This document shows, piece after piece, positions 2,896 through 34,309 of a stretch of 37,272 nucleotides of DNA (position 1 is its first letter; the number at the start of each line of letters is the position of its first letter). The position numbers and the translations under genes were made by a program. The notes beneath the pieces are model-generated. The model saw nothing but the letters and a program-made list of their open reading frames with translations. It had not been told where the DNA came from and searched no databases. The stretch covers positions 1 through 37,272 of the IMG/VR virus record IMGVR_UViG_3300005262_000090; one strand, written 5' to 3'. This stretch comes from a virus.

Positions 2896-3504
2896 ATGGG
2901 CAGATCATCCGCTTCCAGCTCGAAGGCGCGCGCATGGCCCGCTGAACAGGTCGAACGCTGGGCACTGGATCGCATCCGGGAGGCCGCGCGCAATCCGCGC
3001 ACGCATTCGGACGCGCAGGTCGAAGCGCTCGCGGCGTCACTGCGCGAATTTGGCTGGACGATTCCGCTGCTGGTCGACGACGCTGGTGTGCTGATCGCGG
3101 GACATGGGCGACTGCGCGCGGCGCGGCTGCTTGGGCTGGCTGATGCGCCCGTAATGGTCGCGCGAGGCTGGACCGAGGCACAGACGCGTGCCTATCGTGT
3201 TGCAGACAACCAGCTTGCGCTCGCGGCCGGGTGGGACGAAGAGCTGCTTGCGGCCGAACTGGCAGAGATCAAAAGTGTTGATTTTGACCTGTCGCTGATC
3301 GGCTTTAACGATGAAGATCTGGCGCGCCTGCTAGACACCATAACGGACGATCCTGCGGAAAATCACGACGAGCGGCATGACCGCGATATCGTCTATCGCG
3401 AGCAGTATGGAGTGATCGTGATTTGCGACGACGTGAGCGCGCAGGAACAGACATACAACCGCCTCATGCAGCTTGGTTATCACTGCAAGGTGGTGTGTAC
3501 ATGA
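2896..3504 (+). CDS. ParB/Srx-like N-terminal domain protein
   Basis: A 202-aa protein whose first 120 residues match the phage/plasmid ParB-Srx (ParBc) fold: ARNPRTHSDAQVEALAASL at 31-49, the core box IAGHGRLRAARLLGL at 67-81, and TRAYRVADNQLALAAGW at 97-113. A C-terminal segment from about 166 (YREQYGVIVICDDVSAQEQ, ending YHCKVV) is a short alpha/beta add-on also seen in stand-alone phage ParB-like proteins. The Srx/ParB fold binds nucleotide and occurs in partition CTPases, nucleases and base-modification operons; there is no ParB HTH here. The stop overlaps the next gene in ATGA, showing translational coupling. The ATG at 2896 is the only in-frame start after an upstream stop at 2860, and its ribosome site is poor. 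Confidence 0.8.
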   Translation: MGRSSASSSKARAWPAEQVERWALDRIREAARNPRTHSDAQVEALAASLREFGWTIPLLVDDAGVLIAGHGRLRAARLLGLADAPVMVARGWTEAQTRAYRVADNQLALAAGWDEELLAAELAEIKSVDFDLSLIGFNDEDLARLLDTITDDPAENHDERHDRDIVYREQYGVIVICDDVSAQEQTYNRLMQLGYHCKVVCT

Positions 3505-4610
3505 AAGTCAGTGTGCGCAACCGGTGCGCGGACTTCACCAGCTATCGGGCCGCGCGGGTCAAATCGCTGTTTAATGCAGAAAGCGGCTGCAATTTTGCCG
3601 TCGATGCCGAACTCGACATTGACGACGCCGACTGGCGTATCGGCGTCATTGTCGGCCCATCGGGCTCGGGCAAGACCAGCATCGGGCGGCAGCTTTTCGG
3701 CGGCGGCACGCTTTACGCGCCCGACGGTTGGAGCGCGGATCAACCGATCGTTGACTGCATAGCGCCCGCTGGGGCCTTTGATGCAGTAACCTCGGCGTTG
3801 GCCGCGGTCGGGCTGGGGTCGGTGCCGGCATGGTTGCGGCCATATGCGGTGCTCTCCAACGGTGAACGGTTTCGTGCCGACCTCGCGAAGGTGGTCTGTG
3901 AGGCACCGGCGTGTGTGGTAATTGACGAGTTTTCATCGGTCGTGGACCGCCAGATTGCGCGCTTTGGCGCACTTGCATTCCAGAAGGCATGGCGACGCAC
4001 AGGTGGAAAGTGCGTACTGCTGTCCTGCCACTACGACATTCTGGACTGGCTCGAGCCTGACTGGGTCTTCGATACCGCAACGGGCAGATTCGAACGGGGG
4101 CGTCTTTGGCGGCGACCAGAGTTTGAGCTCGAGATTTGGCAGACGGACAGCCGTTACTGGCATCTCTTTGAGCCACATTACTATTTGAACCTGCCTTCCA
4201 TGATTGCCGCCGACTACTATATTGGCACGGTCGACGGTGAACTGGTCGCGCACTTGGGCGTCTCGCCCCGACTTTTCGACGGTGCAATGCGTGCAAGCCG
4301 CATGGTTGTGATGCCGGAATGGCAAGGCGCGGGGATCGGGCTACGTTTCCTGAACGCGATATGTGAACTGCAGGTAAGTGGAAAGAGCCGCTATGGTTCG
4401 CGGGTCAAATCGGTCCAGTTTCACACGTCGCATCCGGGCCTTTGCACGGCACTTCGACGGGACCCTCACTGGCGGCAGATCAGCGCGGTGCTTTACGGCG
4501 GAAACAAGACCAGAAGCGCCCGTACAATCCGCCTGGCCGGTCATCGGGGCGTCGGATATGGCGGTCACTTTCGGGCGGTCCAGGGGTTTCGCTACGTCGT
4601 TTCCGAATGA
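3501..4610 (+). CDS. ABC-type ATPase fused to GNAT acyltransferase
   Basis: A 369-aa two-domain protein. Residues about 40-190 form a soluble ABC ATPase: Walker A GPSGSGKTS (52-60), signature LSNGE (118-122), Walker B VVIDEF (139-144), D-loop VVDR and switch His177. There are no membrane helices, so this is not a transporter partner. Residues about 210-369 form a GNAT domain, with the acetyl-CoA pyrophosphate loop VVMPEWQGAGIGLRFL (269-284). I start it at 3501, where ATGA overlaps the parB-like stop; the longer reading from 3423 runs inside that gene. Its own stop overlaps the formyltransferase ATG. The fusion inside a ParB/formyltransferase operon suggests ATP-dependent acyl modification of DNA or another macromolecule, possibly comparable in principle to Mu Mom (also GNAT-like). 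The substrate is unknown. Confidence 0.8.
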   Translation: MKVSVRNRCADFTSYRAARVKSLFNAESGCNFAVDAELDIDDADWRIGVIVGPSGSGKTSIGRQLFGGGTLYAPDGWSADQPIVDCIAPAGAFDAVTSALAAVGLGSVPAWLRPYAVLSNGERFRADLAKVVCEAPACVVIDEFSSVVDRQIARFGALAFQKAWRRTGGKCVLLSCHYDILDWLEPDWVFDTATGRFERGRLWRRPEFELEIWQTDSRYWHLFEPHYYLNLPSMIAADYYIGTVDGELVAHLGVSPRLFDGAMRASRMVVMPEWQGAGIGLRFLNAICELQVSGKSRYGSRVKSVQFHTSHPGLCTALRRDPHWRQISAVLYGGNKTRSARTIRLAGHRGVGYGGHFRAVQGFRYVVSE

Positions 4611-5206
4611 ACATTTACGTCTGCGGGCAGAAGCATTTCGGCGCCGCTGTCTTTTCGGCATTGCATGCTGCGGGACACGGCATGCTCGGTGTATGCGCCC
4701 CCGCATTGAACGATGCTGGCGAACGTGACCGGCTGCGCGCGCGGGCGACCGAGGTCGACGTTCCCTGGACCGATTGCGGGCGCCTGTGCGCTGATATCTT
4801 GCCGTCCGGCATCGACGTTATTGTCGCGGCGCACACCCATCAGTTCATAGACAGCCGCACGCGAGGCCAGGCGAACTTTGGGGCAATTGGCTATCACCCG
4901 TCGCTGCTGCCGCTGTATCGGGGTCGCGACGCCATAGCATGCGCACTACGGGCACATGAACGGGTCACCGGCGGCACCGTGTACTGGCTGTCGGACCGCA
5001 TGGACGGTGGCGACATAGCAGCGCAGGAGCATGTATTCGTGAGACCTGCCGACACTGCGACGATGCTATGGCGTCGCGATCTGGCGCCGCTAGGCGTGCG
5101 TCTGCTGATCCGCGTCTGCGCCGAGGTCGAACACGGCCAGCAGCACAGGACGCCTCAGGACGAAACACTGGCGACATGGGCGCGAGCGTTGGCTCACGAT
5201 GTTTGA
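4607..5206 (+). CDS. Formyltransferase-like enzyme (PurN/Fmt fold), altered active site
   Basis: A 199-aa protein starting MNIYVCGQKHFGA. It carries the formyl-transferase catalytic region: GYHPSLLPLYRGRDAI (95-110) and GGTVYWLSDRMDGGDIAAQE (122-141). PurN, Fmt and ArnA use an Asn-x-His plus Asp set with 10-formyltetrahydrofolate; here His97 and Asp133 are kept but the Asn position is Gly95. The protein is as short as PurN and lacks the C-terminal tRNA-binding domain of Fmt. The ATG at 4607 overlaps the previous stop (ATGA), and its own end overlaps the next gene by 8 bases. The longer reading from 4442 is inside the GNAT domain and is rejected. A folate-dependent one-carbon or acyl transfer step in a base-modification pathway is a reasonable inference. 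Confidence 0.75.
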   Translation: MNIYVCGQKHFGAAVFSALHAAGHGMLGVCAPALNDAGERDRLRARATEVDVPWTDCGRLCADILPSGIDVIVAAHTHQFIDSRTRGQANFGAIGYHPSLLPLYRGRDAIACALRAHERVTGGTVYWLSDRMDGGDIAAQEHVFVRPADTATMLWRRDLAPLGVRLLIRVCAEVEHGQQHRTPQDETLATWARALAHDV

Positions 5207-5855
5207 TATCTCGGTGAAAGCGAACGTCGATGTCGTCGCACGCGGACTGTCTGCGCTTGCGTTCCGGCAGTTGCCGTTTGCCGAAGCACGCACCGTGACC
5301 GAACTCGGGAAGCTCGCGCAGGCCGCCGAAAAGCAGGCCATGCCCAAAGTGTTCGAGAATCCCACGCCCTTTACGGTCAACTCGGTCGCAGTACAGGCGG
5401 CGAAAAAGTCGATGCCCGTCGCGCGCGTCTATATCCGCGACAAGGCAGCGCAGTATCTCGCGCCGTACGAGTATGGCGGCATGCAGTATCTCGGCGGGAA
5501 GCGCGCCGACCTCGTGCCGGTCGGCGCTGCCGCGAACCGCTACGGCAACCTGCCGCGCAACGCGATCCGCAAGTATCTGAGCCGCCCGGACGTCTTTCTC
5601 GGGAATGTAAAGACCGCACACGGCAACGTCTACGGGCTGTGGCAGCGCCCGCAGCCCGTCGCGAAGAAAACCGGACGGCGCGCAGCGAAAGGCGCGAACA
5701 CGAGCGGCAAGCTCAAGCTGCTGGTGGCTTTTCATGCGCCCGTGCAGACACGCAAGCGGCTCGGCTTCGGTGATCGTGCGCAGGCGGTCGTATCAGCGAA
5801 TTTTAATCGCGTGTTCGGTGCGGAGCTGGCGCAGGCCATCGCGCGCGCGACGTAG
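5199..5855 (+). CDS. Phage structural protein, possibly gp10-like head-tail/tail completion
   Basis: A 218-aa basic protein (starts MFDISVKANVDVVARGLSA) with segments typical of small virion proteins that join head and tail: KQAMPKVFENPTPFTVNS, YLAPYEYGGMQYLGGKR and NRYGNLPRNAIRKYLSRP. It resembles HK97 gp10-like/minor tail proteins in style, but I cannot name a family securely. It overlaps the formyltransferase gene by 8 bases, so it belongs to the same operon, and it sits upstream of the terminase instead of in its usual place near the head-tail genes. A diverged copy of its last 25 codons appears again at 6647-6720 beyond the first cargo gene. Confidence 0.55.
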   Translation: MFDISVKANVDVVARGLSALAFRQLPFAEARTVTELGKLAQAAEKQAMPKVFENPTPFTVNSVAVQAAKKSMPVARVYIRDKAAQYLAPYEYGGMQYLGGKRADLVPVGAAANRYGNLPRNAIRKYLSRPDVFLGNVKTAHGNVYGLWQRPQPVAKKTGRRAAKGANTSGKLKLLVAFHAPVQTRKRLGFGDRAQAVVSANFNRVFGAELAQAIARAT

Positions 5856-5873
5856 TTTTGGCGTGAATCGCGT

Positions 5874-6437
5874 TTAACCGTTCTGATAAAAATCGACGAT
5901 GAGGTCGTAATTGTTTGTCCCATGCGAATCGATGACGATGCGCCACCCATAGTTCGTTTGACAAGCTCGTATTGGGCGTGGAACGGGTGGGTTAAAGCAC
6001 GCGCCACCGGTACCGTCATCGAATTTTGAGCCTCCCCAGACGAAAATCCGTCCGGCACCCTGATTAAAAAAGCTGTCCTTAGGCGGCACGATCGCGCTGT
6101 CGAAGTTAGTGTCCTCACTCGTAAAGTTCATACACGCGAAGATAGGCATCGGATATTGAACCGGATGGAACCGGCCGAAATGACCGTGAGGCATTGGTGC
6201 AGACGCGAGCCAAATTCCAGGACTATGCCCTCCATAATTGTCTGTTCCTTGCAGGACCGGTCCCGTACAGTTGCCAAGAGGAGGCAATGCGTCGAGTTGA
6301 GTCGTGCTGCAAGCCCCAAGCAAGCCACCAATGCCCAGCATGTATAGAAATGCTCGCTTCAGTCTCCGCACACGGTCACGCATCTCTTGACGCGATCTAT
6401 TGGTACTGGACAGCAAGCGCAATTTCATCTTGTTCAT
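5874..6437 (-). CDS. Cargo lipoprotein (minus strand within the late region)
   Basis: A 187-aa predicted lipoprotein: a basic n-region (RVRRLKR), a hydrophobic segment FLYMLGIGGLLGA and a lipobox LGAC with the lipidated Cys at residue 43. The mature part is 144 aa, Gly/Pro/Asn-rich with several Cys, and includes WRIVIDSHGTNNYDLIVDFY at the end. The start at 6437 is backed by GAGGAAG 7 bases upstream; an internal ATG at 6383 would give a more usual signal length but a poorer ribosome site. It ends 18 bases from the stop of the plus-strand gene before it. Small lipoproteins expressed from prophages often block receptors or DNA entry, but nothing in the sequence proves this. Base composition is visibly less GC-rich than its neighbours. 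Confidence 0.7.
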   Translation of the reverse strand: MNKMKLRLLSSTNRSRQEMRDRVRRLKRAFLYMLGIGGLLGACSTTQLDALPPLGNCTGPVLQGTDNYGGHSPGIWLASAPMPHGHFGRFHPVQYPMPIFACMNFTSEDTNFDSAIVPPKDSFFNQGAGRIFVWGGSKFDDGTGGACFNPPVPRPIRACQTNYGWRIVIDSHGTNNYDLIVDFYQNG

Positions 6438-6498
6438 TGCTTCCTCGCTATGGTTTGTCCACTACTGCCGTCGACGTGAGCACCTCGTCATGCGATTC

Positions 6499-6557
6499 GT
6501 TAAGCCACTTAACTATATCGTTCGGTCGATTCGCGTAAATGTGCGGAAACGAACACT
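6499..6557 (-). promoter_or_regulatory. Promoter/operator of the cargo lipoprotein (copy A)
   Basis: On the minus strand TTTACG (6534-6539) and TATAGT (6512-6517) are spaced by 16 bases. A perfect palindrome GTTAAG-CCA-CTTAAC (plus-strand reading) lies at 6499-6513, overlapping the -10 and start point, where a repressor could bind. The block ending at 6557 (aaatgtgcgg then aacgaacact with one variable base between) recurs at 7441-7461. Confidence 0.55.
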
Positions 6558-6646
6558 CTGCCTCCTGTGGATCGAGTAGGCAATTAACGCATCCGACCCA
6601 CACTGATGGCATCCATGTGAATTGCGAGGCGCCTAGTCTTAGCGCT

Positions 6647-6720
6647 CGTGTTCAGGCTTTCGTCTCGGCGAACTTCGACCGCGTATTTGGCGCGGAACTG
6701 GCAAAGGCGAGTGCGACTAG
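6647..6720 (+). repeat. Diverged duplicate of the 3' end of the 5199-5855 gene
   Basis: Read in frame, this stretch encodes RVQAFVSANFDRVFGAELAKA, against RAQAVVSANFNRVFGAELAQA at the end of the gene at 5775-5855 (17 of 21 residues identical). It has no gene body before it; the surrounding ORF (6539-6742) is only a shell. The DNA has diverged mostly at third positions, suggesting it came from a related phage by recombination and not from a recent copy. The rest of 6558-6742 shows nothing else recognisable. Confidence 0.75.
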
Positions 6721-6742
6721 GCACTGGCCGACGCGACGCTGA

Positions 6743-7342
6743 TCATACTGTCAAGCTGCTCTCGGAACGCTTCGCGATCGGATAGTATTCGGCCCAAAAA
6801 ACAATGCTCGCTGCGAGCAGCCATAGCAACGTTCCAATAGAGCATGACCATGCAGCACCAATCGAAAAAAGTTGATCGATGCCTTGCGCAAGACAGGGTA
6901 TGGCTATCAAGGAAAACATGATTGGAACTGTTTGGGCCAGCCAATATATCCAACCAACGGGCTTGTAATTTTTGTTGCGGAAATAGTCAGTGATCAAACC
7001 GACGTCAGCCGAGAACATGTTTCCGGCTTGACGATACGCAACATTTTGATTGTGCCAACCGCAGTAGTTCAGCATGTGCCATATGCAATTCAGGATAAGG
7101 ACAATGAGCCCCACCCAGCCCAATATTAGCTTGTTATTGCGAACGGCATCATTGGTAAGTGCATTGACGAGAAATCCATTCACGACTATGAATCCCGTGT
7201 AGCGTTGCCAGATAAGCTGAAGCTCTTGGCAAGCGATCGCAATGCCCGCGCGATAGAGGGTCGCATCAGGGGCCTGCAATTCAGCGGGGGCAATGGGTTG
7301 CCGCTTCCGCCCCTCTTCGGTTTTCGCCTCTAGGCTAGTCAT
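6743..7342 (-). CDS. Cargo polytopic membrane protein, four predicted helices
   Basis: A 199-aa protein with a soluble N-terminus of about 45 residues and four hydrophobic segments: YTGFIVVNGFLVNAL, LILGWVGLIVLILNCIW, WLAQTVPIMFSLIAIPCLA and CSIGTLLWLLAASIVFWA. A charged loop of about 40 residues joins the second and third. The start at 7342 has GAGGAAGC just upstream, the same ribosome site as the lipoprotein gene. I do not recognise a named family; the QELQLIWQRYTGFIVVNGF opening recalls small membrane proteins of unknown function in bacterial genomes. Inner-membrane cargo of this size could act in superinfection exclusion or abortive infection, which is inference. It shares its promoter region with the lipoprotein gene. 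Confidence 0.65.
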   Translation of the reverse strand: MTSLEAKTEEGRKRQPIAPAELQAPDATLYRAGIAIACQELQLIWQRYTGFIVVNGFLVNALTNDAVRNNKLILGWVGLIVLILNCIWHMLNYCGWHNQNVAYRQAGNMFSADVGLITDYFRNKNYKPVGWIYWLAQTVPIMFSLIAIPCLAQGIDQLFSIGAAWSCSIGTLLWLLAASIVFWAEYYPIAKRSESSLTV

Positions 7343-7415
7343 TGCTTCCTCTCAATGGCGGGTTCGGCGGTAAGCACGAATGAGAGTCACGTCATGCCAT
7401 TTGTAAAGCACCCCA

Positions 7416-7461
7416 ACTATATTCGGCAGGCGAATTGAGCAAATGTGCGGTAACGAACACT
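7416..7461 (-). promoter_or_regulatory. Promoter of the cargo membrane protein (copy B)
   Basis: TTTGCT (7438-7443) and TATAGT (7416-7421) on the minus strand are again spaced by 16 bases. The upstream 21-base block at 7441-7461 differs from that of copy A at one position, and the first 12 bases around the start codon (7340-7351) are identical to 6435-6446. The palindrome seen in copy A is only partly kept. Confidence 0.5.
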
Positions 7462-8068
7462 GATCGAAGCATCGGTCGGGTATGCGGTCGATACAAAGAC
7501 TACGCATCGCACCTGCGACGGCGATCACGGACGCGAAATAGCCCTCTCAGAGTACCCTTCCGTGCATGCCCAAGAAACGAAGCCTCTCGCCCACAACGAC
7601 TTCAACACGCGCACGCTGCGACGTGCCGAAACGGTGTCGCCGGGGTCCGTCCTCGACGGTGGCTTCCGGAGTGTCAAAAGGTACTTTCCGGGCTATCGAA
7701 AGCCGGGGGCAATTGCGCACCGCGTACTTCCCCCAGCTGCGGAGGGTCATTTGTCTTTGCACTACGCACTGTGTTGGGTTGCTTCACGAAATGGATCTCT
7801 ATCACGGCTCATCCCGGGGGATGTGAGAGTTCCGCCCAGTCACTGGTTTCGTTTTGATATTTTCCAGACTCTGAATATTGCCAAAACCAACCTGAACTCC
7901 CATAACACGACGAAACGTTCCATTTTTGTGCATAGGGTTTGACATGCGCTCCGTTGACGGTCTGGCACAGGAAACTACAAAGCGCGCCGTTATTCGTATT
8001 CTGACGCGACGTCGGATGCCTTTAGCTAGTGATCCACATTCATTTGCAAGCAACGCGAACACCTAGAA
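7462..8068. other. About 600 bases with no convincing gene
   Basis: This gap separates the membrane-protein promoter from the stop of the glutamic peptidase gene. Several ORFs of 70-140 codons occur on both strands (for example 7562-7942 plus, 7547-7762 minus), but none has a ribosome site or a recognisable motif and they overlap one another. It may be the remnant of another cargo cassette. Confidence 0.35.
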
Positions 8069-9610
8069 TCACTTCTTATAAAGCAAAACGTCTCTCCACT
8101 GTGCGCCAGGTCCCCTGAGGAGGACCGTTCCGCACACTATTCCAGCGCCGTAGTCCGCGTGATTCAGAGTTGGAAATCCTCCTACAAAGCCGTTTTTGGT
8201 CGCATAGTCCTGCGTTGAACGGAATCTTTGCAATGGATCAGCTAGATCGGGGTGGCCTAACTCAGCTAGAGGCACATCTCTGAACTCGGCGCTAGGAGCT
8301 TTGAGGCAGACTGTGCCGCACACAATGCCTTTCCCATAGTCGGCGTGGAAGTAAGTCGGGAATCCACCGACAAACCCGTTTCCAGCAGCGTATGCGTTGG
8401 CCAGTTGCAAACGCAGCCAAAAGTTCTCAAGACTCGGGTTTCCTAGTTGTGTTAGGAAAACGTCTCTCCATTCTGCGATAGAGTTGTCGACGAAGATTGT
8501 GCCACCCACATGATCTGGACCGTAATCCGCTTCGTAGAAGTTAGGGAAGGCGGCAACTAAACCTTCGTTGGAGGCGAGCGTGCAACGCTGCCGAAAAGCC
8601 TCCATAGCCTTTGTCGGCCAATCGGGCCCAATAAAGGACACCACAACCTTAAATGTACTCAATTGCACACTTGTGAGCGTAACGCCGTTCTTGTCATCGA
8701 TGTCGTTGGTATCGCCGCTCAAGGGGTCACCCATGATGGCTTTCCCACCTGGGTCTGGTCCATAGGCAGATGCGTTGGTGAAAATCACTGGGGAGAAAGC
8801 GACTAAGGCGTTATCCGGCTCGCCGTAGTCAGGGTCTTCCATTATCCACTCAGCAGTCGAGCCCACAGACTTCACAAGGGGCGGCGGCGGCAGTGTCTGA
8901 GAGACAATCTTGTCGGTAGAAATGTTGGCAAAGAGGATGTGTCCTTGTCCTCCTCTATAGGAGATGGAAGCAAAGACTTCGTGACCGGGCGCGACTTCAA
9001 AGTGTTTAAAGGCAGTTTCATAGACGTAGTCTGGCGAACCATCGGGAGGTTTACCGTCGGGGCCAGCAGAAAACCATTCAAACCACGCTTCGCAGGTTGC
9101 CTCGCCGGTATTTAATAGGTCTTGGCGGATACCGGCTTGCAGAACGTCGTTGGTCGTCGATCCATCAAGACCAACCCACGACGAGGATTTCCATCGATTG
9201 CCATTTCCGGCAGGATAGGGAGGCCTGCTAATCACGGGGATTCTCCACTGACCATATACTGAACTCCAATTCCCCCCTAACACTCCACCGGCCCACCTAG
9301 CGCCGCGAAACACGTTGCCAGTGTTAGTCGGTTTGATTAGGGCATCTCGAACGTGTGTTATGCCGGGGTGTGGCGTAAGTTCGGGTATCACGACGTCCCC
9401 TGGTTTGATCTGCCGGTCAAGGATAAAGTCTTTGAAATGACGCGACGCCGGGGAGTCTATGCTTTTGATGTGTTCAACGACTTGAGGATCAAGGAGCGAC
9501 TCTAAAGTGACTTTCTTTCGTTCAAAATCTTTAGGATCTATGTCGTGGAATACGATTCCACGTATGTTCGTTGTACGAATGATAGAACCAGCGGGCTTGA
9601 CAGTAGGCAT
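8069..9610 (-). CDS. G1-family (eqolisin-type) glutamic peptidase with three C-terminal repeats
   Basis: A 513-aa protein. Residues about 100-282 match the peptidase G1 fold: a Trp-rich entry WSSVYGQWRIPV, the Gln motif SWVGLDG...VLQAG (candidate catalytic Gln158), CEAWFEWFSAG, and the Glu motif TAEWIMEDP (candidate catalytic Glu254), then a Phe-rich end. G1 enzymes use a Gln/Glu pair, mostly work at acid pH and were first known from fungi. The C-terminal third has three repeats about 62 residues apart, centred on 350-389, 413-450 and 475-510, with the pattern GFVGGFPT..HADYG.G...GT..L....A.WRDV. No signal peptide is seen at the N-terminus; residues 1-100 could be a propeptide-like segment. 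The ATG at 9610 has GGGAGAG upstream. It is minus-strand cargo ahead of the terminase genes. Confidence 0.85.
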   Translation of the reverse strand: MPTVKPAGSIIRTTNIRGIVFHDIDPKDFERKKVTLESLLDPQVVEHIKSIDSPASRHFKDFILDRQIKPGDVVIPELTPHPGITHVRDALIKPTNTGNVFRGARWAGGVLGGNWSSVYGQWRIPVISRPPYPAGNGNRWKSSSWVGLDGSTTNDVLQAGIRQDLLNTGEATCEAWFEWFSAGPDGKPPDGSPDYVYETAFKHFEVAPGHEVFASISYRGGQGHILFANISTDKIVSQTLPPPPLVKSVGSTAEWIMEDPDYGEPDNALVAFSPVIFTNASAYGPDPGGKAIMGDPLSGDTNDIDDKNGVTLTSVQLSTFKVVVSFIGPDWPTKAMEAFRQRCTLASNEGLVAAFPNFYEADYGPDHVGGTIFVDNSIAEWRDVFLTQLGNPSLENFWLRLQLANAYAAGNGFVGGFPTYFHADYGKGIVCGTVCLKAPSAEFRDVPLAELGHPDLADPLQRFRSTQDYATKNGFVGGFPTLNHADYGAGIVCGTVLLRGPGAQWRDVLLYKK

Positions 9611-10037: not shown

Positions 10038-10550
10038 GTGACGGCGACCATTTCAATCCGTGAATTCGCGCGGCGCGAGGAGGTCTCCGATACGCTCGTT
10101 CATCAGGCGCTAAAACAGGGGCGACTGAGCAAATCGGCGGACGGCGGAATGGACCCGGCGTTGGTCGGTACAGCATGGCGTGCGGGCGCGGCGCGCGCAA
10201 ATCCCGATGCAAACCCCGCTTTGCAGTCTGCCGGTGGTCCCAAGGGCGTCACCTATGGCGAAGCGCTGCGCCTGAAAGAGAACTGGCTCGCGCTGCTGCG
10301 CCGCTTGGAATACGAACACAAGTCCGGCGCGCTGGTGGAGGTGTCGATTGCGCAGCGCGTAGTGTTCGACCTGTGCCGCGAGCAGCGCGACCAGTGGCTG
10401 GCGTGGCCCGCGAAGATCGCGCCATTTCTCGCGGTCGAGTTTGGTATCGCCGACCTCGAGCGGCTGACCGCTTCGCTAGATGCGCATGTTCACGACCAGC
10501 TTGCCGAACTTGGAGAGCCAGAAGCGCGCTTCGAAGCCGGCGAAGCATGA
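10038..10550 (+). CDS. terS: Terminase small subunit (TerS/Nu1-like)
   Basis: Reading from the GTG at 10038 gives 170 aa beginning with an HTH-like start: ATISIREFARREEVSDTLVHQALKQGRL in two stretches, the DNA-recognition part of phage small terminases. A basic middle and a helical C-terminus (LCREQRDQWLAWPAKIAPFL) follow. TerS recognises the packaging site and loads DNA onto TerL. The longer reading from a TTG at 9990 has an unlikely start and extra residues unlike the family. Its 3' end overlaps the large subunit gene by 71 bases. It is the first plus-strand gene after the cargo island, so a promoter or read-through across about 4 kb of opposing genes is needed. Confidence 0.75.
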   Translation: MTATISIREFARREEVSDTLVHQALKQGRLSKSADGGMDPALVGTAWRAGAARANPDANPALQSAGGPKGVTYGEALRLKENWLALLRRLEYEHKSGALVEVSIAQRVVFDLCREQRDQWLAWPAKIAPFLAVEFGIADLERLTASLDAHVHDQLAELGEPEARFEAGEA

Positions 10551-12609
10551 GCTGATCGCGCAGACCGGGCGGCGCGGCTGGACACCACCGCCGCGGCTGA
10601 GCCTGCCCGAATGGGCGGACCAGCATCGGAGGCTGGCACGTTCGGCGGGCAGCCTGTCGGGGCACTGGCACACATCGACCGTCGAGATTGCGCGCGGCCC
10701 GATGCTCGCGGTCACGGAACCCGGCGTGCATGTCATCACGGCGATGGTCTGCACGCAGCTGCTCAAGACCGCGCTGCTTGAAAACATCATCGGCTATCAC
10801 GCACACCTCGATCCGTGCCCGATGCTGCTGCTACAGCCCAAGGACGACGCCGCCGAACAGTTCAGCAAGGAAAGGCTGACGCCGCTGATTCGCGCGACGC
10901 CCGTGCTGCGCGAGCTGATCGGCCCGGCGCGCACGCGCAGCGCGGACGACACGCTGCTGTACAAGGCATTTCCGGGCGGCTTTGTCGCGCTGGCCGGCGC
11001 GGGCAGTCCCGACAATCTCGCGCGCCGCCCGGTGCGCATTGTCCTGGCGGACGAGATCGACAAGTATCCCGTCACGCGTGAAGGCGATCCGATCACGCTC
11101 GCGGAAGAACGTACCGCCACGTTTCTCGCATGGCTCAGTGTGCGGGCCTGTTCGCCCACGGTATCGGAAGAAAGCCGGATCGAGGACAGCTATGAAGCGT
11201 CCGACCAGCGCCGTGCGTCGCTGGCGTGTCCGCACTGCGGGCATCGCCTGTTTCCCGATTTCTTCCGCCACATTGAATGGGACAAGACACGCGACGACGC
11301 GGGTCGCGTCACCGCACATCGCACAGCGACCGCGCGGCTGTACTGCGAGGCGTGCGGCGCGGGCTGGTCCGAAGCCGACCGGATGACGGCATTGCAGAGC
11401 GCGCGCTGGCATCAGACGCGCCCGTTCGAGTGCTGCGGCGTGCGACATGTGCCGCTCGATGACTACGCGAGCGCCTGGCGCGAGCGCGACGGCGATGCTG
11501 CTGTGTCCGCCGTATGGGACTGGTGGCGGGATGGACAGAACGACCGTTACGCGGTCTGGCGCGCGCGCTGTCCGACATGCGGCAGATGGGGCGTCGAGAA
11601 CGCCCACGCAGGTTTTCAGGCATCGAAGCTGTTCAGCCCGTGGTCCCGCGACCGTCCGCCCTCGATTGCCGAAAAGTGGATTGCTGCGCTGGGTGACGAG
11701 GAAAAACTCCAGGCCTGGTGGAACACGCAGATGGGCCTTCCGTACCGTGCGCATGCGGGGCGACGCGTCCAGGCGGACGTACTCGCGTCACGCGGTGAGG
11801 TGTGGGCCGCCGAAGTACCCGATGGTGTCGCCGTGGTCGTGACCGGCATCGACGTGCAGGACTATCGCATCGAATGCGAGACGGTCGGCTGGGGCCGCAA
11901 CGAGGAAAGCTGGTCAATCGACTACACGATCATTGAGGGCGAGTTTGGCGATACGCCCACACAGATGCGGATCGACACGTACCTGAGACGCACGTGGACG
12001 CGCGCGGATGGACGGCCATTCGAAGTGATCGCGGCGTGTATCGACTCGGGCGGACACCATACCCAGGCCGTCTATGAGTTCTGCAAGGCGCGCATTGGAC
12101 GGCGCGTCTGGGCGATCAAGGGCGAAGCCGCGCGCGGCGGCGAGCGCAATCCCGTGTGGCCATCGAAACGGCCCACGCAGCGCACGAAAAAGACCTATCG
12201 CCCGGTGATTCTCGGCGTGAACGCCGCCAAGGACACGATCCGCCAGCGCCTGCTGGTCGAAGCACCGGGACCCGGTTACATGCACTTTCCGGCGGATCGC
12301 GATATCGGCTACTTCGCGCAGCTCACCGCCGAACGGCTGGTCGTCAAGGAATCGGGCGGCAAGCGCTATCGGGTGTGGGAACTGCCGCCAGGTCGCGCCA
12401 ATGAGGCGCTCGACTGCCGCGTCTATGCATACGGCGCGCTGTGCGGGCTGCTGCATTTCGGCCTGCAGCTGAACCGCCGCGCCAATGCGGTTGGCGCCTG
12501 GACGACGCCAGCGGCGCCGCGTGCTCCCGCAGCTGGACCTGTACCGGGTGCGGTGGTTGCGTCCGCGCCACCTGTGATACGGAAATCGCTGATTAACCGG
12601 CTTGCGTAA
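10480..12609 (+). CDS. terL: Terminase large subunit, lambda GpA family
   Basis: A 709-aa packaging motor and nuclease with the GpA layout: WTPPPRLSLPEWADQHRRL near the start, a deviant P-loop region around CTQLLKTALLEN (91-102), Walker B RIVLADEIDKYP (186-197), two Cys pairs (CPHCG and CEACG) in the middle, and a C-terminal nuclease part beginning TGIDVQDYRIECETVGWG and ending with NEALDCRVYAYGAL. It cuts concatemers at cos-like ends and pumps DNA through the portal. The ATG at 10480 (or 10486) lies within terS, so translation is probably coupled. Length is near that of lambda gpA (about 640 aa), with a Pro/Ala-rich tail. Confidence 0.93.
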   Translation: MRMFTTSLPNLESQKRASKPAKHELIAQTGRRGWTPPPRLSLPEWADQHRRLARSAGSLSGHWHTSTVEIARGPMLAVTEPGVHVITAMVCTQLLKTALLENIIGYHAHLDPCPMLLLQPKDDAAEQFSKERLTPLIRATPVLRELIGPARTRSADDTLLYKAFPGGFVALAGAGSPDNLARRPVRIVLADEIDKYPVTREGDPITLAEERTATFLAWLSVRACSPTVSEESRIEDSYEASDQRRASLACPHCGHRLFPDFFRHIEWDKTRDDAGRVTAHRTATARLYCEACGAGWSEADRMTALQSARWHQTRPFECCGVRHVPLDDYASAWRERDGDAAVSAVWDWWRDGQNDRYAVWRARCPTCGRWGVENAHAGFQASKLFSPWSRDRPPSIAEKWIAALGDEEKLQAWWNTQMGLPYRAHAGRRVQADVLASRGEVWAAEVPDGVAVVVTGIDVQDYRIECETVGWGRNEESWSIDYTIIEGEFGDTPTQMRIDTYLRRTWTRADGRPFEVIAACIDSGGHHTQAVYEFCKARIGRRVWAIKGEAARGGERNPVWPSKRPTQRTKKTYRPVILGVNAAKDTIRQRLLVEAPGPGYMHFPADRDIGYFAQLTAERLVVKESGGKRYRVWELPPGRANEALDCRVYAYGALCGLLHFGLQLNRRANAVGAWTTPAAPRAPAAGPVPGAVVASAPPVIRKSLINRLA

Positions 12610-14654: not shown

Positions 14655-15962
14655 CTATTGTCCATCCAACACTGCGATGCTGTTCTCGCTCACGCGGAGC
14701 CAACCAGTATTCTCCAGTACCAGCTGGCGTGCCCCTTCTTGCGAAAGCTCGCCACCAAGAACCAACCGGAGTAGGCCGAGCAAATCGATTGTTCGCATCA
14801 CTAGTATGCGCATCTTGACAGCATGCCGAATCTGTTGAGCATCAATCTGCTGCTCTTTGTCAGCGATTGACCTAGCACTCTTTATGTTTGTGTTTGCGAT
14901 CAGAACAGCTGGGAATGATTCATCATATCCAGAACGCTCGCGGTGCGAGTCCGTCTGATTTATGTTCTCTCTTCCAACTCCTCGATTAATTCCTTTTATT
15001 TCGCACAACGCGACGATTTTTCCGCTGTCGTCCAGTAGCTTGACGTCTTCTCGCAACTCATCGGTCGCATCGATCTTCAGACCGAGCGCGGCCTGTAGAA
15101 TCGCGCTTACGTCCGCGACTAGCTCTTCGCCAGAGTGAAAGAGCGCCGATTTGAACCGGTTCAATTCTTCGAAGCGTCGGTCGATCCCGTTCACGCGCTC
15201 CAAAAGTTCGGCCTTAGTGCTTGCCAGCGTGTCTTCCTCATCAAATTTGTATGAATCAACCCATTCCGGCAGGATTTGATGCAGCTTGTTATGTGCAGCT
15301 GTTACAGCGCCGAGAAGCAGCGTGAGATATTCAACAAGCGTTCGACTTTCAGGTAAAAGCGAAGGGACAAAGTACTCGGAGCGATTAATGAGCAGGCCAA
15401 CCGTTCTTTCCCCGAAAGTCGCCAACGGGCGGCAGTCAAGCTCGTCGTTGAAGTTTTCGAAATAACTGAATGCAGCCCCAAATACGTCGAAGAAATTTTT
15501 GAACTCGTTGTATGTATGCGCGAATGTTATATGAGCGACGCGAGCGTTAAAGTTGCGTCTGTGGAAGTAACCATAAGAAAGATGGAACTTGGTCAGATCA
15601 GTGCGGCTGAAATCGCGCCCATCGTCATTGTCGAGGAAAGGATCGGTCAGCAGGTGACAAATAAATCCTCCGCTATCTAACAGCAGCTTCGATTCTTTCT
15701 TCCGTTTGTCTAGCTCATCGACATCGTAGGAGTGGCGCAGATAAGCGCTCATCGCCCCATTCTTTCGCTCAAACCGTTCGAAGATACCTTGGAACAAGAC
15801 AACGCCGTCATATTCTTGAAAGCGTCTGGCAGTGTGAAATTCTTCAAAAAAAACATCGAAGTACTTGGTCCGCAAAGGCTCGGATGGTGTCTGAAGACCT
15901 CTGCGCTCAAAGCCGTACGCTAGGATTTTGTAAGTGCGCTCGGGATTTTCAGTCGATGCCAT
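14655..15962 (-). CDS. Cargo protein with PD-(D/E)XK-like nuclease motif, candidate anti-phage defence
   Basis: A 435-aa cytoplasmic protein of lower GC than the flanking genes. The C-terminal part shows a restriction-endonuclease-like core: DELREDVKLLDDSGKIVALCEIKG in two stretches, with Asp306 and the E-x-K of EIKG (321-323), then GYDESFPAVLIANTNI and RILVMRTIDLLGLLRL, as in PD-(D/E)XK nucleases. The N-terminal 300 residues (YDGVVLFQGIFERFERKNG; LLLDSGGFICHLLTDPF) I do not recognise. It lies opposite to the head genes, ending 65 bases from the portal stop and starting 74 bases before the protease start. The location, orientation and nuclease motif resemble phage-borne defence genes. No membrane segment or signal peptide is seen. 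Confidence 0.65.
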   Translation of the reverse strand: MASTENPERTYKILAYGFERRGLQTPSEPLRTKYFDVFFEEFHTARRFQEYDGVVLFQGIFERFERKNGAMSAYLRHSYDVDELDKRKKESKLLLDSGGFICHLLTDPFLDNDDGRDFSRTDLTKFHLSYGYFHRRNFNARVAHITFAHTYNEFKNFFDVFGAAFSYFENFNDELDCRPLATFGERTVGLLINRSEYFVPSLLPESRTLVEYLTLLLGAVTAAHNKLHQILPEWVDSYKFDEEDTLASTKAELLERVNGIDRRFEELNRFKSALFHSGEELVADVSAILQAALGLKIDATDELREDVKLLDDSGKIVALCEIKGINRGVGRENINQTDSHRERSGYDESFPAVLIANTNIKSARSIADKEQQIDAQQIRHAVKMRILVMRTIDLLGLLRLVLGGELSQEGARQLVLENTGWLRVSENSIAVLDGQ

Positions 15963-31268: not shown

Positions 31269-32014
31269 ATGGATCGATACTGGGAAGCGAACGCGATTTC
31301 GTCTGCGCCGCCGACACCGGCCAGCACCTCGGGCGGCTATCCGACCGACGGCAATCCCGTTACGGCGACGCCGCCCACGACGCCCGGCGCCTGGTGGTAT
31401 CACGCGATTACCGAAGAACTGCGTAACGCGATTGTGAAGCTCGGCGGCACGCCGGACTTTACGCAGGTGGACCAGCTCGCCAATGCGATCGTTGCGTCGA
31501 TTTCGAAGGCCATCAGCACCGCCACCGGCGACCTCGCAAAAGTTGCGTATACGGGCAGCTATGGCGACCTGAATAACACGCCGGTACTGGCGAAAGTGGC
31601 AACGTCGGGCGTGTACAACTGTCGGGGAAACCCGACCTGAGTGTCTACGCGACGACTTCGGCCATGAACGCAAATGTTTCAATCCTGCAAGGCGAGATTA
31701 ACGGCAAGCAGGCAGCGGGCAACTATGTCGCGGGTGTCAATCATGGTTTCGCCATCTACTGGACCGGCGCGCGGCCCGGATTGTCAATCGACAACGCGGA
31801 CCAGGGCGATCTCTACTGTGCAGACTGGTACAGGCCGATGACGATAGGTGCGCTCGGTAACACGCTGTTGGTGGAACAGAACGAAACCGGCTCGCCCGGC
31901 ACACTCTCGGCGGGCATCCATTGCATGGGCACGCTTTACCCTGGCACGTGGATGAGTTGCGGCGGCGGGCAGACCAGCGGCAACAACTGGTATGCATGGC
32001 TACGCGTTGGATAG
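31269..32014 (+). pseudogene. Tail fibre 1, frameshifted
   Basis: The first frame (31269-31640, 123 codons) has the anchor shared by all three fibres: MDRYWEANAISSAPP, TTPGAWWYHAITEELRNAI and GGTPDFTQVDQLANAIV, then a short repeat with YTGSYGDLNNTPVLAKV. It stops after SGVYNCRGNPT. Reading in the -1 frame from 31619 gives LSGKPDLSVYATTSAMN and continues to 32014, ending in a Gly/Asn-rich tip (SCGGGQTSGNNWYAWLRVG). Adding four bases (gacc) between tacaac and tgtcg restores the usual YNDLSGKPDL and a 249-aa protein. No slippery heptamer is present, so this is a frameshift mutation or a sequencing error, not programmed shifting. Confidence 0.75.
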
Positions 32015-32022
32015 GAGCCGCA

Positions 32023-32232
32023 ATGCGCTACACGGACGTGACGGACGCTGCTTATGTCGATGCCGGACATACGGCCATTCGATGCATGGTGCAGTTTGAG
32101 GCGTTTCCCGTGCCTGTCCCTTTTCTCGCGATGGCATCCGATATCGAAGCACATGGCCGCCAGCTCTTCGGGGAACTGGTTGCGGGCGAGCATGGCCCGA
32201 TAGCGGATTACACCGCACCTGAGCATGCGTAA
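32023..32232 (+). CDS. Small protein downstream of fibre 1, possible fibre assembly factor
   Basis: A 69-aa protein (MRYTDVTDAAYVDAGHTAIR start; GELVAGEHGPIADYTAPEH end). The ATG at 32023 has AGGAG 6 bases upstream, clearly better than the longer frame from 31921. Small proteins of this form, with the GPIAxYxAP ending, follow phage tail fibre genes and may be assembly helpers. It lies between fibres 1 and 2 and ends 2 bases before the next ATG. Confidence 0.7.
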   Translation: MRYTDVTDAAYVDAGHTAIRCMVQFEAFPVPVPFLAMASDIEAHGRQLFGELVAGEHGPIADYTAPEHA

Positions 32233-32234
32233 TC

Positions 32235-34250
32235 ATGGACCGTTACTGGAAGAGCAATCCGGCAGCCAGTGCGCCGGTCGCGCCCGTATCGAATGCGGGC
32301 GGCTATCCGCAGGACGGCAAGCCCGAAAGCGATGTAACGGGCACGGTCCCCGGCGCATGGTGGTTCCACGCGATTACGGAGGAAGTCCGTAACGCAATTG
32401 CGCAGGCAGGGATTACGCCGGACTTCTCGAAGACGGACCAGCTTGCCAAAGCGCTGTCATCAGCGCTCGAATTTATCAACACAGGGACGGGCGCACTGTC
32501 GCGGACGACGCTCGACAAGCAGCGCGAAACTATCGATGCGGACGACTACGACACGTTAATGGATGCCGCTGCCGAATCGGTACGCACGGGGCGACACGTG
32601 CGACTGCCTGGACGGAATCTGTCCGTACCGGCAAACACAGTGATTCCCGGCGGTGCCGTATTTCGCGGCGTCGAAGGTATGACACAGATCACAATCACGG
32701 GCAGCGGTGCGCTTGTTCATGGCGGGAACGGCATCCGCTTCACGGGTGTCACGTTCGCGGGCGGCACCTACGCTGTCAACACCTCCGGCAAATCGCGCGG
32801 GCGCTACCAGTCCTGCACGTTTTGCGGCCAGACGAGCCACGGTGTCTGGTGCGATGGTGACAATCATGTATTCGACCGCAATCTCTTCCTGAATTGCGGC
32901 GGCTCTGGGCTTGCATTCGTCGGTGCGTCTGCTGCCCTGAATGAAGTGACCGGAAACGTGTTCGACGGTTGCGCGAATTTTGGCATCTGGAACGCCCAGG
33001 GAGCCAACCGCAATCTGCTTAGCGGCAACCGGACTATCGGGAACGGGCTGGAACTGATCGGTGTGACGTCTGATAGCTGGGGGCACAGGATCACGGCCAA
33101 TCACGCAGCGGGAACCGGGGACAATGGCATTTCGGTGAGCGGTTACCGATGTGCTGTAACGGGTAACGTCTGCGAGAGCAACGCGAATCACGGTATTGGC
33201 CTGTACGGCGAGCGAAACGCAGTAACGGGAAACATCTGTCGGAACAACGGACAGCGCAACCTGACGATGCCGGGCGGCGCGTATGCGGGCATTACCTGCA
33301 CTCCGGCATTCGGCGGGCTCGCGCGCAAGAACATCATTACGTGCAATATCTGCGACGACGACCAGGACAGTAAAACCCAGTTCTACGGCGTGAAGGTAAC
33401 GACAAACTCGCATGTGCAGTGGGCTGCTGGAATGACCGTCACCGCGGCGAACCTCGTCTGTTTCAATGAACTCAATCTGTACCGCGCAGCGGGTCCGGGC
33501 GTCGCTGGCAATACCCCGCCGACGCACGGCTCGGGCACGGTCAGCGACGGCTCGATCGCGTGGACATGGATCGCCTCGAACCTGCGCACGCTCGCTGCAA
33601 CTTATGCCGACTGGTCGAAGGCGACTGCCGTCAAGGCCGGCACGCTGCGATTCAGTGGGGTTTGTCTTTATCAGGCTGCGACGGACGGCACAACCGGCAC
33701 GACACCGCCCAGTCATAAGAGCGGTACGGTAAGCGATGGCGGCGTGAACTGGACGTTTATCGAGGAATATCCCGCGAACCTGGATGGATGGGACAACACC
33801 ATCGGCCCGAACCGTGCAAGTGGAAACCTCAAGGCACCGTGGGCAATCCTTGGTGGCAACAAGAATGACATTCATGAAGACGGCGTACTGCGGCTTGGAT
33901 TAAGTGGGCGCAATATTTCATCGAATGTGCTGGTGTTGCCCGGGAACCCGGAAGGCGCCGATTTTGGCGTTGCGGAACCCGGTACGCTCGGCCTGCGCAG
34001 GGACGCCAGCACGACCCCCGGTATTGCACTGATGGTCAAGCAGACCGGCTCAGACAATGCAGGCTGGCTGCACGTGATGCCGCGCCATCAGGGCGCGCTA
34101 ACCGCGCGTCCCGACCTTTCTGCGCTGGGCAACGGACTGCGCGGCTATCAGTATTTCGCGACGGACGTTGGCGCGCACGGCACGCTTCTGATATGGCACG
34201 GTAGCGGCTACTTTGATCCGGTGACAGGCAGCACGTACCCGGCTGCGTAA
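32235..34250 (+). CDS. Tail fibre/spike 2 with right-handed beta-helix
   Basis: A 671-aa protein, the only one of the three with an unbroken start. Residues 1-75 are the shared anchor (MDRYWKSNPAASAPV, TVPGAWWFHAITEEVRNAI, ITPDFSKTDQLAKAL). From about 110 to 390 there is a parallel beta-helix pattern of short Asn/Gly turns (FAGGTYAVNTSG, NRNLLSGNRTIGNG, CAVTGNVCESNANHG). Residues about 395-515 contain two copies of a module with LNLYRAAGPGVAGNTPPTHGS and CLYQAATDGTTGTTPPSHKS, probably carbohydrate-binding. The C-terminus (LIWHGSGYFDPVTGSTYPA) is a trimer tip. It is probably a receptor-binding, polysaccharide-recognising or -cleaving spike. Confidence 0.85.
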   Translation: MDRYWKSNPAASAPVAPVSNAGGYPQDGKPESDVTGTVPGAWWFHAITEEVRNAIAQAGITPDFSKTDQLAKALSSALEFINTGTGALSRTTLDKQRETIDADDYDTLMDAAAESVRTGRHVRLPGRNLSVPANTVIPGGAVFRGVEGMTQITITGSGALVHGGNGIRFTGVTFAGGTYAVNTSGKSRGRYQSCTFCGQTSHGVWCDGDNHVFDRNLFLNCGGSGLAFVGASAALNEVTGNVFDGCANFGIWNAQGANRNLLSGNRTIGNGLELIGVTSDSWGHRITANHAAGTGDNGISVSGYRCAVTGNVCESNANHGIGLYGERNAVTGNICRNNGQRNLTMPGGAYAGITCTPAFGGLARKNIITCNICDDDQDSKTQFYGVKVTTNSHVQWAAGMTVTAANLVCFNELNLYRAAGPGVAGNTPPTHGSGTVSDGSIAWTWIASNLRTLAATYADWSKATAVKAGTLRFSGVCLYQAATDGTTGTTPPSHKSGTVSDGGVNWTFIEEYPANLDGWDNTIGPNRASGNLKAPWAILGGNKNDIHEDGVLRLGLSGRNISSNVLVLPGNPEGADFGVAEPGTLGLRRDASTTPGIALMVKQTGSDNAGWLHVMPRHQGALTARPDLSALGNGLRGYQYFATDVGAHGTLLIWHGSGYFDPVTGSTYPAA

Positions 34251-34255
34251 GCGCT

Positions 34256-34309
34256 ATGGATCGGTACTGGAAAAGCAACACGGCTCCAGTGCGCCCGCCG
34301 TGCCCGTAA
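34256..34309 (+). pseudogene. Frameshifted N-terminal start of fibre 3
   Basis: The ATG at 34256 begins the shared anchor MDRYWKSNTA and would then continue SAPAVPVTNAGGFPVDG, but the frame changes after GCT CC (34283-34287) and stops at 34307-34309. One missing base there restores the frame with the ORF beginning at 34300. Confidence 0.75.

What the first reader, a model, noticed from the sequence alone, without database searches (positions are those of the whole stretch)
5775..7461. Stacked cargo cassettes with homologous promoter modules and a duplicated phage gene end
Two different minus-strand cargo genes (lipoprotein, membrane protein) start from homologous regions: identical ribosome-site blocks, -35/-10 pairs with 16-base spacing, and a 21-base upstream block with one mismatch. 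Between the two genes lies a diverged copy of the 3' end of the 5199-5855 gene (17 of 21 residues). The unit [3' end of late gene]-[reverse cargo]-[promoter] is therefore present twice with different contents. This suggests cassette capture by homologous recombination between related phages, similar in outcome to an integron-like stack.
Basis: partly seen in the sequence, partly recalled or inferred. Interest (0 to 1): 0.85.

Follow-up and report, generated by a model that had tools for sequence, protein, structure and literature searches.

The report
Phage cargo hotspot at cos end
Just beside the place where this bacterial virus cuts its DNA for packaging, related viruses swap different passenger genes, several of them resembling anti-virus defence genes, and this virus carries two such gene cassettes stacked in a row, with a scrap of another virus's tail gene still marking the join.

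Summary
The two minus-strand cargo genes have homologous 5' regions (72 nt at 75%, E 1e-6, plus an identical GAGGAAGCAATGA start block). A second, foreign copy of the tail-gene 3' end (T2, about 6626-6724, E 4e-13) lies between them. It is the right end of the virion genome. In 99 related loci (79 dereplicated) the same interval is empty in 47 and filled in 28. Close relatives carry TIR, DUF2971, DndB/DGQHR, ORC-CDC6 ATPase, muramidase or NlpC genes there. Near-identical prophages with different cargo share sequence only up to the tail gene's 3' part and again from the cos core, so the left half of cos travels with the cargo. This fits right-end exchange: a crossover in the tail gene plus joining or recombination at cos, as speculated by Rousset et al. 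2022 for P2/P4. The window is the only double stack found. 'Integron-like' is not supported. Cargo function is untested. New phage group for a known kind of hotspot, with useful junction evidence.

The parts
5199..5855 (+). last late gene: minor tail protein (PHROG 1924), left anchor; its 3' end (5775-5855) is T1
   Evidence: PHROG 1924 E 1.7e-48; last gene before the genome end in RcCronus
5874..6437 (-). cargo 1: 187-aa putative lipoprotein (LLGAC lipobox), no known family, GC 0.52
   Evidence: ORF; no hit in Pfam, PHROGs, PADLOC, NCBIfam, phages or plasmids; GC
6434..6557 (-). 5' module P1: 21-nt block with imperfect palindrome TGTTCG-TTTC-CGCACA, TTTACG-16-TATAGT, ribosome site and ATG
6558..6625 (.). 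junction sequence x, no homology to relatives: presumed illegitimate join between the two cassettes
   Evidence: no BLAST hit in 218 loci; no cos remnant
6626..6724 (+). T2: relic of the 3' end of another phage's tail gene, not part of an intact gene
   Evidence: nhmmer E 4.4e-13; codon-position bias of differences; nearest L140 81%
6743..7342 (-). cargo 2: 199-aa membrane protein (hydrophobic helices), no known family, GC 0.50
   Evidence: ORF, hydropathy, no family above cut-off
7339..7461 (-). 5' module P2, homologous to P1
7664..7777 (+). cos region: GGTACTTTCC box, core CGGGGGCAATTGCGCACCGCG..CCCAGCT (7703-7738), right arm to GTCTTTGCAC
   Evidence: conserved in about 20 loci between tail gene and terS and aligned with the terminal repeat of the RcCronus genome; R4C cohesive ends upstream of terS (PMC6836515)
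8069..9610 (-). third cargo on the other side of cos: Peptidase_A4 (eqolisin/G1) protein, between cos and terS
   Evidence: Pfam PF01828 E 2.3e-34; cos-to-terL distance 2772 nt against a median of 625
10039..10555 (+). terS (start inferred at a GTG near 10039)
   Evidence: homology to relatives' terS
10480..12609 (+). terL (GpA type), right anchor
   Evidence: PF05876 and PF20454

Best explanation
The interval is a cargo hotspot at the right end of the virion genome of a cos-type temperate phage whose relatives live in Burkholderiaceae. Shown from sequence: it lies between the last late gene and cos (cos by homology); its contents vary in otherwise near-identical phages; and the exchanged segment runs from the 3' part of the tail gene to the cos core. 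Inferred: exchange happens when two such phages share a cell. One crossover takes place in the diverged but homologous tail gene (the phage encodes a RecE/YqaJ-type exonuclease). The other join is at cos, through compatible cohesive ends or recombination in the conserved core. Cargo genes run against the late genes from their own promoters, so that they can be on in the lysogen; several look like defence or cell-envelope genes that would protect the lysogen. In the window two right ends are stacked: T1-lipoprotein-P1 from one phage is joined, by an illegitimate junction inside the tail gene of another phage, to T2-membrane protein-P2-cos. The homologous P modules suggest that both cassettes descend from one promoter platform whose coding sequence was replaced.
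For: Position: the homologous tail gene ends 66 nt before the end of the linear RcCronus genome and terS starts at 48, with a 13-nt repeat at both record ends that aligns with the conserved core; R4C has cohesive ends upstream of terS (PMC6836515). Turnover: 99 loci, 79 dereplicated, 47 empty, 28 filled. L141, L142, L143, L144 and L148 are about 85-95% identical over 6.7 kb left and 90-95% over 3.7-4.1 kb right, yet L141, L142, L143/L144 and L148 carry four unrelated cargoes; L143 and L144 share one. Junctions: in 31 pairs alike on both sides but with different or absent cargo, identity is 0.53-0.70 in the 30 nt left of the cos core and 0.96-0.97 in the first 20 nt right of it; same-cargo pairs have 0.91-1.00 left. 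Gapped values in three groups: left 50 nt 0.70/0.73/0.77, right 50 nt 0.94/0.94/0.91, random 0.57; L171 against L047 or L197: right 1.00, left 0.68. Tail 3' ends also differ with cargo (0.73-0.84 against 0.82-1.0). Cargo: PF10137 TIR (PADLOC PDC-S35), DUF2971 (PDC-S31), DndB/DGQHR, ORC-CDC6-like ATPase, muramidase, NlpC/P60. Integrase and RecE-like exonuclease in the longer record. T2 is foreign.
Against: No termini of this phage have been mapped; cos is inferred by homology. Homologous recombination inside the roughly 25-nt conserved core would leave the same mark as cohesive-end joining. The pairs compared are not independent (three groups of related phages). L143 and L144 share cargo and are mosaic on both sides, with no clean step at cos. 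Only some cargoes match defence families, and neither of the window's two does. P modules occur in no other locus found, so their generality is untested.
Confidence: 0.78

Rival explanations
1. Ordinary moron turnover: cargo genes are inserted and deleted one by one by illegitimate recombination in a gap that tolerates insertions, and cos is a border only because it cannot be disrupted.
For: T2's left junction shows no homology; an insertion is also seen on the other side of cos in the window; cargoes differ in strand and kind in the more distant groups.
Against: Simple insertion would leave the left half of cos and the tail gene's 3' end as similar as the rest between near-identical phages, but both change with the cargo.
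Confidence: 0.15
2. In-situ duplication: the phage tandemly duplicated its own right end (tail 3' end, cargo, promoter) and one cargo was later replaced.
For: T1/T2 and P1/P2 show similar divergence (about 74% and 73-75%), as expected for two copies of one unit.
Against: T2 is closer to L140 (81%) than to T1 (74%), and T1 is closer to L140 (82%) than to T2. The differences follow codon positions, so T2 diverged while still part of a functional gene.
Confidence: 0.05
3. Site-specific cassette system (integron-like, or a satellite using the tail gene's 3' end as attachment site, which would also leave a copy of the gene end).
For: A copy of the gene's 3' end flanks the cargo; integrases lie in the interval of L053 and L212.
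Against: T1 and T2 share no long identical core (17 differences in 63 nt); there is no integrase gene and no inverted repeat in the window's interval; other filled loci carry no second gene end.
Confidence: 0.02

Closest known systems
[quoted passage not shown] 2022, PMC9122126)
   Same: Small locus of 1-5 kb next to cos between conserved genes, high turnover, many defence-like genes, sometimes more than one system; those authors speculate on exchange through cohesive ends plus homologous recombination.
   Different: Different phage group and anchors (PHROG 1924 tail gene and terS/GpA terL of Burkholderiaceae phages); anti-phage activity not tested here; here the junctions can be read in near-identical prophages, and one genome holds a stacked pair with a relic gene end.
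Moron hotspots of Burkholderia siphophage prophages (phi1026b/phiE125 group, PMC2920897)
   Same: Different morons at one place between conserved phage genes; some expressed in the lysogen.
   Different: In the passages read, that paper does not tie the hotspot to cos or read exchange junctions; whether it is the same locus was not checked.
Phage lambda bor (from general knowledge, not tested)
   Same: Lipoprotein gene on the opposite strand near the right end of the lambda genome, not far from cos.
   Different: Single gene; comparison from memory only, no sequence comparison made.
Integron cassette arrays
   Same: Different genes stacked between repeats.
   Different: No integrase or attC-like repeats; cargo has its own 5' modules and is bounded by a phage gene and cos.

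Membership tests
cos-adjacent phage hotspot (Rousset 2022 kind) | small locus (about 1-5 kb) between two conserved phage genes | tested here: met
   tail gene to terS; intervals from 32 nt to about 2.5 kb, one of 5.8 kb
cos-adjacent phage hotspot (Rousset 2022 kind) | directly next to cos | tested here: met
   conserved block aligned with RcCronus genome ends; by homology, termini of this phage not mapped
cos-adjacent phage hotspot (Rousset 2022 kind) | high turnover of content between close relatives | tested here: met
   near-identical prophages with unrelated cargo
cos-adjacent phage hotspot (Rousset 2022 kind) | reservoir of anti-phage systems | tested here: inconclusive
   TIR, DUF2971, DndB/DGQHR and an ATPase match defence-related models in relatives; the window's two genes match none; no activity test
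moron | extra gene between conserved phage genes, absent from relatives | tested here: met
moron | own promoter, expressed in the prophage | tested here: inconclusive
   promoter-like hexamers and conserved 5' modules only; expression not testable here
moron | atypical base composition | tested here: met
   GC 0.50-0.52 against 0.62 for the window and 0.66 for terL
integron | integron integrase next to the array | tested here: not met
   no integrase ORF in the interval
integron | attC sites between cassettes | tested here: not met
   no inverted repeats of at least 14 nt and no significant Rfam match in the interval; a dedicated attC model was not available

The most novel reading that the evidence does not exclude
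The phages' packaging cut is itself the engine of cargo exchange: right ends of different phages are ligated at cos and resolved by one crossover in the last gene, so that any cos phage tends to evolve a swap site there. The window caught a failed or double swap, leaving two cassettes, each under a shared regulated promoter platform (a conserved imperfect palindrome over the -35), as a growing stack.
Probability: 0.3. Interest if true: 0.72.

Novelty: new member of a known kind. Interest (0 to 1): 0.5.

Why it matters
Rousset et al. could only speculate why defence genes gather next to cos. Here near-identical prophages show that the exchanged piece ends at the cos core and starts in the last late gene, in a phage group with other anchors than P2. 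That makes the idea directly testable by co-infection, extends cos-end hotspots to Burkholderiaceae phages, and gives a list of untested cargo genes (including the window's lipoprotein and membrane protein) at a place where defence and exclusion genes are expected.

Tried and rejected
A decayed cos between the two cassettes (6540-6670): the PSSM score is unremarkable (rank 179 of 37237). A second T copy in L145: nhmmer E 0.027, at the level of clear chance hits. The P module in other phages or in 398 Burkholderiaceae genomes: none, exact in viral contigs and up to one mismatch in genomes. The palindrome as a phage-wide operator: no further site beyond chance in the window or in the 20 kb that begin the longer record. 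Homologues of the two cargo proteins: none in phages, plasmids, viral contigs or the genomes searched. Structure models of both were too poor to search with (pLDDT 51 and 45). The orphan T fragment in Paraburkholderia BCC1885 as proof of a mobile unit: the neighbouring rcnB gene is a common chromosomal gene, found in the same neighbourhood without the fragment in G434, so it shows only that such fragments can land in chromosomes. L143 against L144 as a clean reciprocal case: rejected after sliding-window comparison.

Full report
What was checked. All three parts are in the sequence and beyond chance. The homology of the 5' regions runs from a 21-nt block (one mismatch) to the start codon, where it stops; the coding sequences are unrelated. 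The gene-end copy T2 spans about 6626-6724 and matches the profile of relatives' tail ends with E 4e-13.

Where it is. The 5199-5855 gene is a minor tail protein of PHROG 1924. In the linear genomes of Rhodobacter phages RcCronus, RcRhea and RcSaxon and of Dinoroseobacter phage R4C this gene lies at the very right end, and in RcCronus and R4C terS is the first gene. Between the tail gene and terS, relatives share a block GGGTCCTTCC...GCGGGGGCAATTGCGCACCGCG...CCAGCTA, found once in the window, at 7703-7738, with a score of 41 against 3.5 for the next best site. The RcCronus record begins and ends with the same 13 nt, and this repeat falls on the core of the block. R4C is reported to have 14-nt cohesive ends upstream of terS (PMC6836515). 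I therefore read the block as cos, and the interval 5856-7702 as the right end of the virion genome. The Peptidase_A4 gene at 8069-9610 lies on the other side of cos, where only one other locus (L186) has a long distance to terL.

What relatives have there. Tail-gene homologues were collected from 398 Burkholderiaceae and 146 congeneric genomes (overlapping sets) and 80 viral contigs. Of 99 loci with a readable interval (79 dereplicated), 47 have at most 150 nt between tail stop and cos and 28 have more than 300 nt. In the window's own clade the cargo is on the minus strand: 442-aa NlpC/P60 protein (L140), muramidase plus 422-aa protein (L141), DndB/DGQHR protein plus 248-aa protein (L142), TIR-domain protein (L143, L144), DUF2971 protein (L145), a 245-aa probable membrane protein (L148), ORC-CDC6-like ATPase (L039). 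TIR and DUF2971 proteins match PADLOC candidate defence models PDC-S35 and PDC-S31. Other groups carry plus-strand HNH or small genes, and L053 and L212 carry an integrase there. L004 is empty.

How exchange works. L141, L142, L143/L144 and L148 are largely identical on both sides (about 85-95%) but have unrelated cargo. Identity falls inside the 3' part of the tail gene and resumes at the cos core. Over 31 pairs alike on both sides with different or absent cargo, the 30 nt left of the core are 0.53-0.70 identical and the first 20 nt right of it 0.96-0.97; pairs with the same cargo have 0.91-1.00 on the left. With gaps allowed, three groups give 0.70, 0.73 and 0.77 on the left and 0.94, 0.94 and 0.91 on the right. 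The left half of cos contains a conserved box (GGGTCC), so mere insertion before cos would have left it unchanged; instead its surroundings change with the cargo. This is what joining of right ends at cos, with a second crossover in the tail gene, predicts. Rousset et al. proposed exactly this as a speculation for P2 and P4 (PMC9122126). Cohesive-end joining and ordinary recombination inside the conserved core cannot be told apart from sequence. The record that contains the window also encodes a tyrosine integrase and a RecE/YqaJ-type exonuclease, so the phage is probably temperate and has its own recombination function.

The stack. T2 differs from T1 at 17 of 63 positions, 13 of them third codon positions (p 3e-4), and is closer to the tail gene of L140 than to T1. 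It therefore diverged inside a working tail gene of another phage. The sequence between P1 and T2 matches nothing in 218 loci, and contains no cos remnant. The simplest reading is that a right-end fragment of a second phage, broken inside its tail gene, was joined by an illegitimate event behind the first cassette, so that the second phage's cos now serves the genome. P1 and P2 are as diverged as T1 and T2, which fits two allelic descendants of one cassette site whose coding sequences had been replaced. No other locus shows a second gene end, so stacking with a relic is rare and this part rests on one genome.

What the cargo does. Neither protein matches a family, homologues were not found, and the models were poor. 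The first has a lipobox (LLGAC) and the second hydrophobic helices. From the company the site keeps, superinfection exclusion or defence in the lysogen is the most likely role, perhaps 50%; this is inference.

Verdict. The kind of hotspot is known from P2 and P4; the phage group, the readable junctions and the stacked pair are new here as far as the papers searched show.

Noticed in passing
window 8069-9610: A 513-aa Peptidase_A4 (eqolisin/G1) gene sits between cos and terS, a place that is short in nearly all relatives; an acid protease is unusual phage cargo.
   Followed up: partly
window 14655-15962: A further minus-strand gene (435 aa, GC 0.50, no family) lies between portal and the next head gene, absent from the compared relatives.
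   Followed up: partly
L002 10030-10107: Orphan 3' end of a tail gene of this family abuts the 3' end of a chromosomal rcnB gene in Paraburkholderia sp. BCC1885, next to a type VI secretion cluster; a relative (G434) has the same rcnB neighbourhood on one side without the fragment.
   Followed up: partly
L138 9001-9111: Another orphan tail-gene 3' end (about 36 codons with stop) next to two-component genes at a contig end in G445.
   Followed up: partly
L064 4308-7637: Large terminase gene interrupted by an in-frame, intein-like insert of several hundred codons between its N-terminal part and the rest.
   Followed up: no
L053 4148-5161 (oriented), L212 6687-7703: Integrase genes lie in the tail-cos interval of these prophages, so attP may be there too.
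   Followed up: no
window 3495-5203: Genes upstream of the tail gene encode an ATPase/GNAT-like protein (PHROG 11143) and a formyltransferase, unusual just before the last late gene.
   Followed up: no
window 31330-34486: Repeated blocks of 120-230 nt at 70-82% identity between genes of the tail region (31330-31500, 32226-32453, 34244-34486).
   Followed up: no
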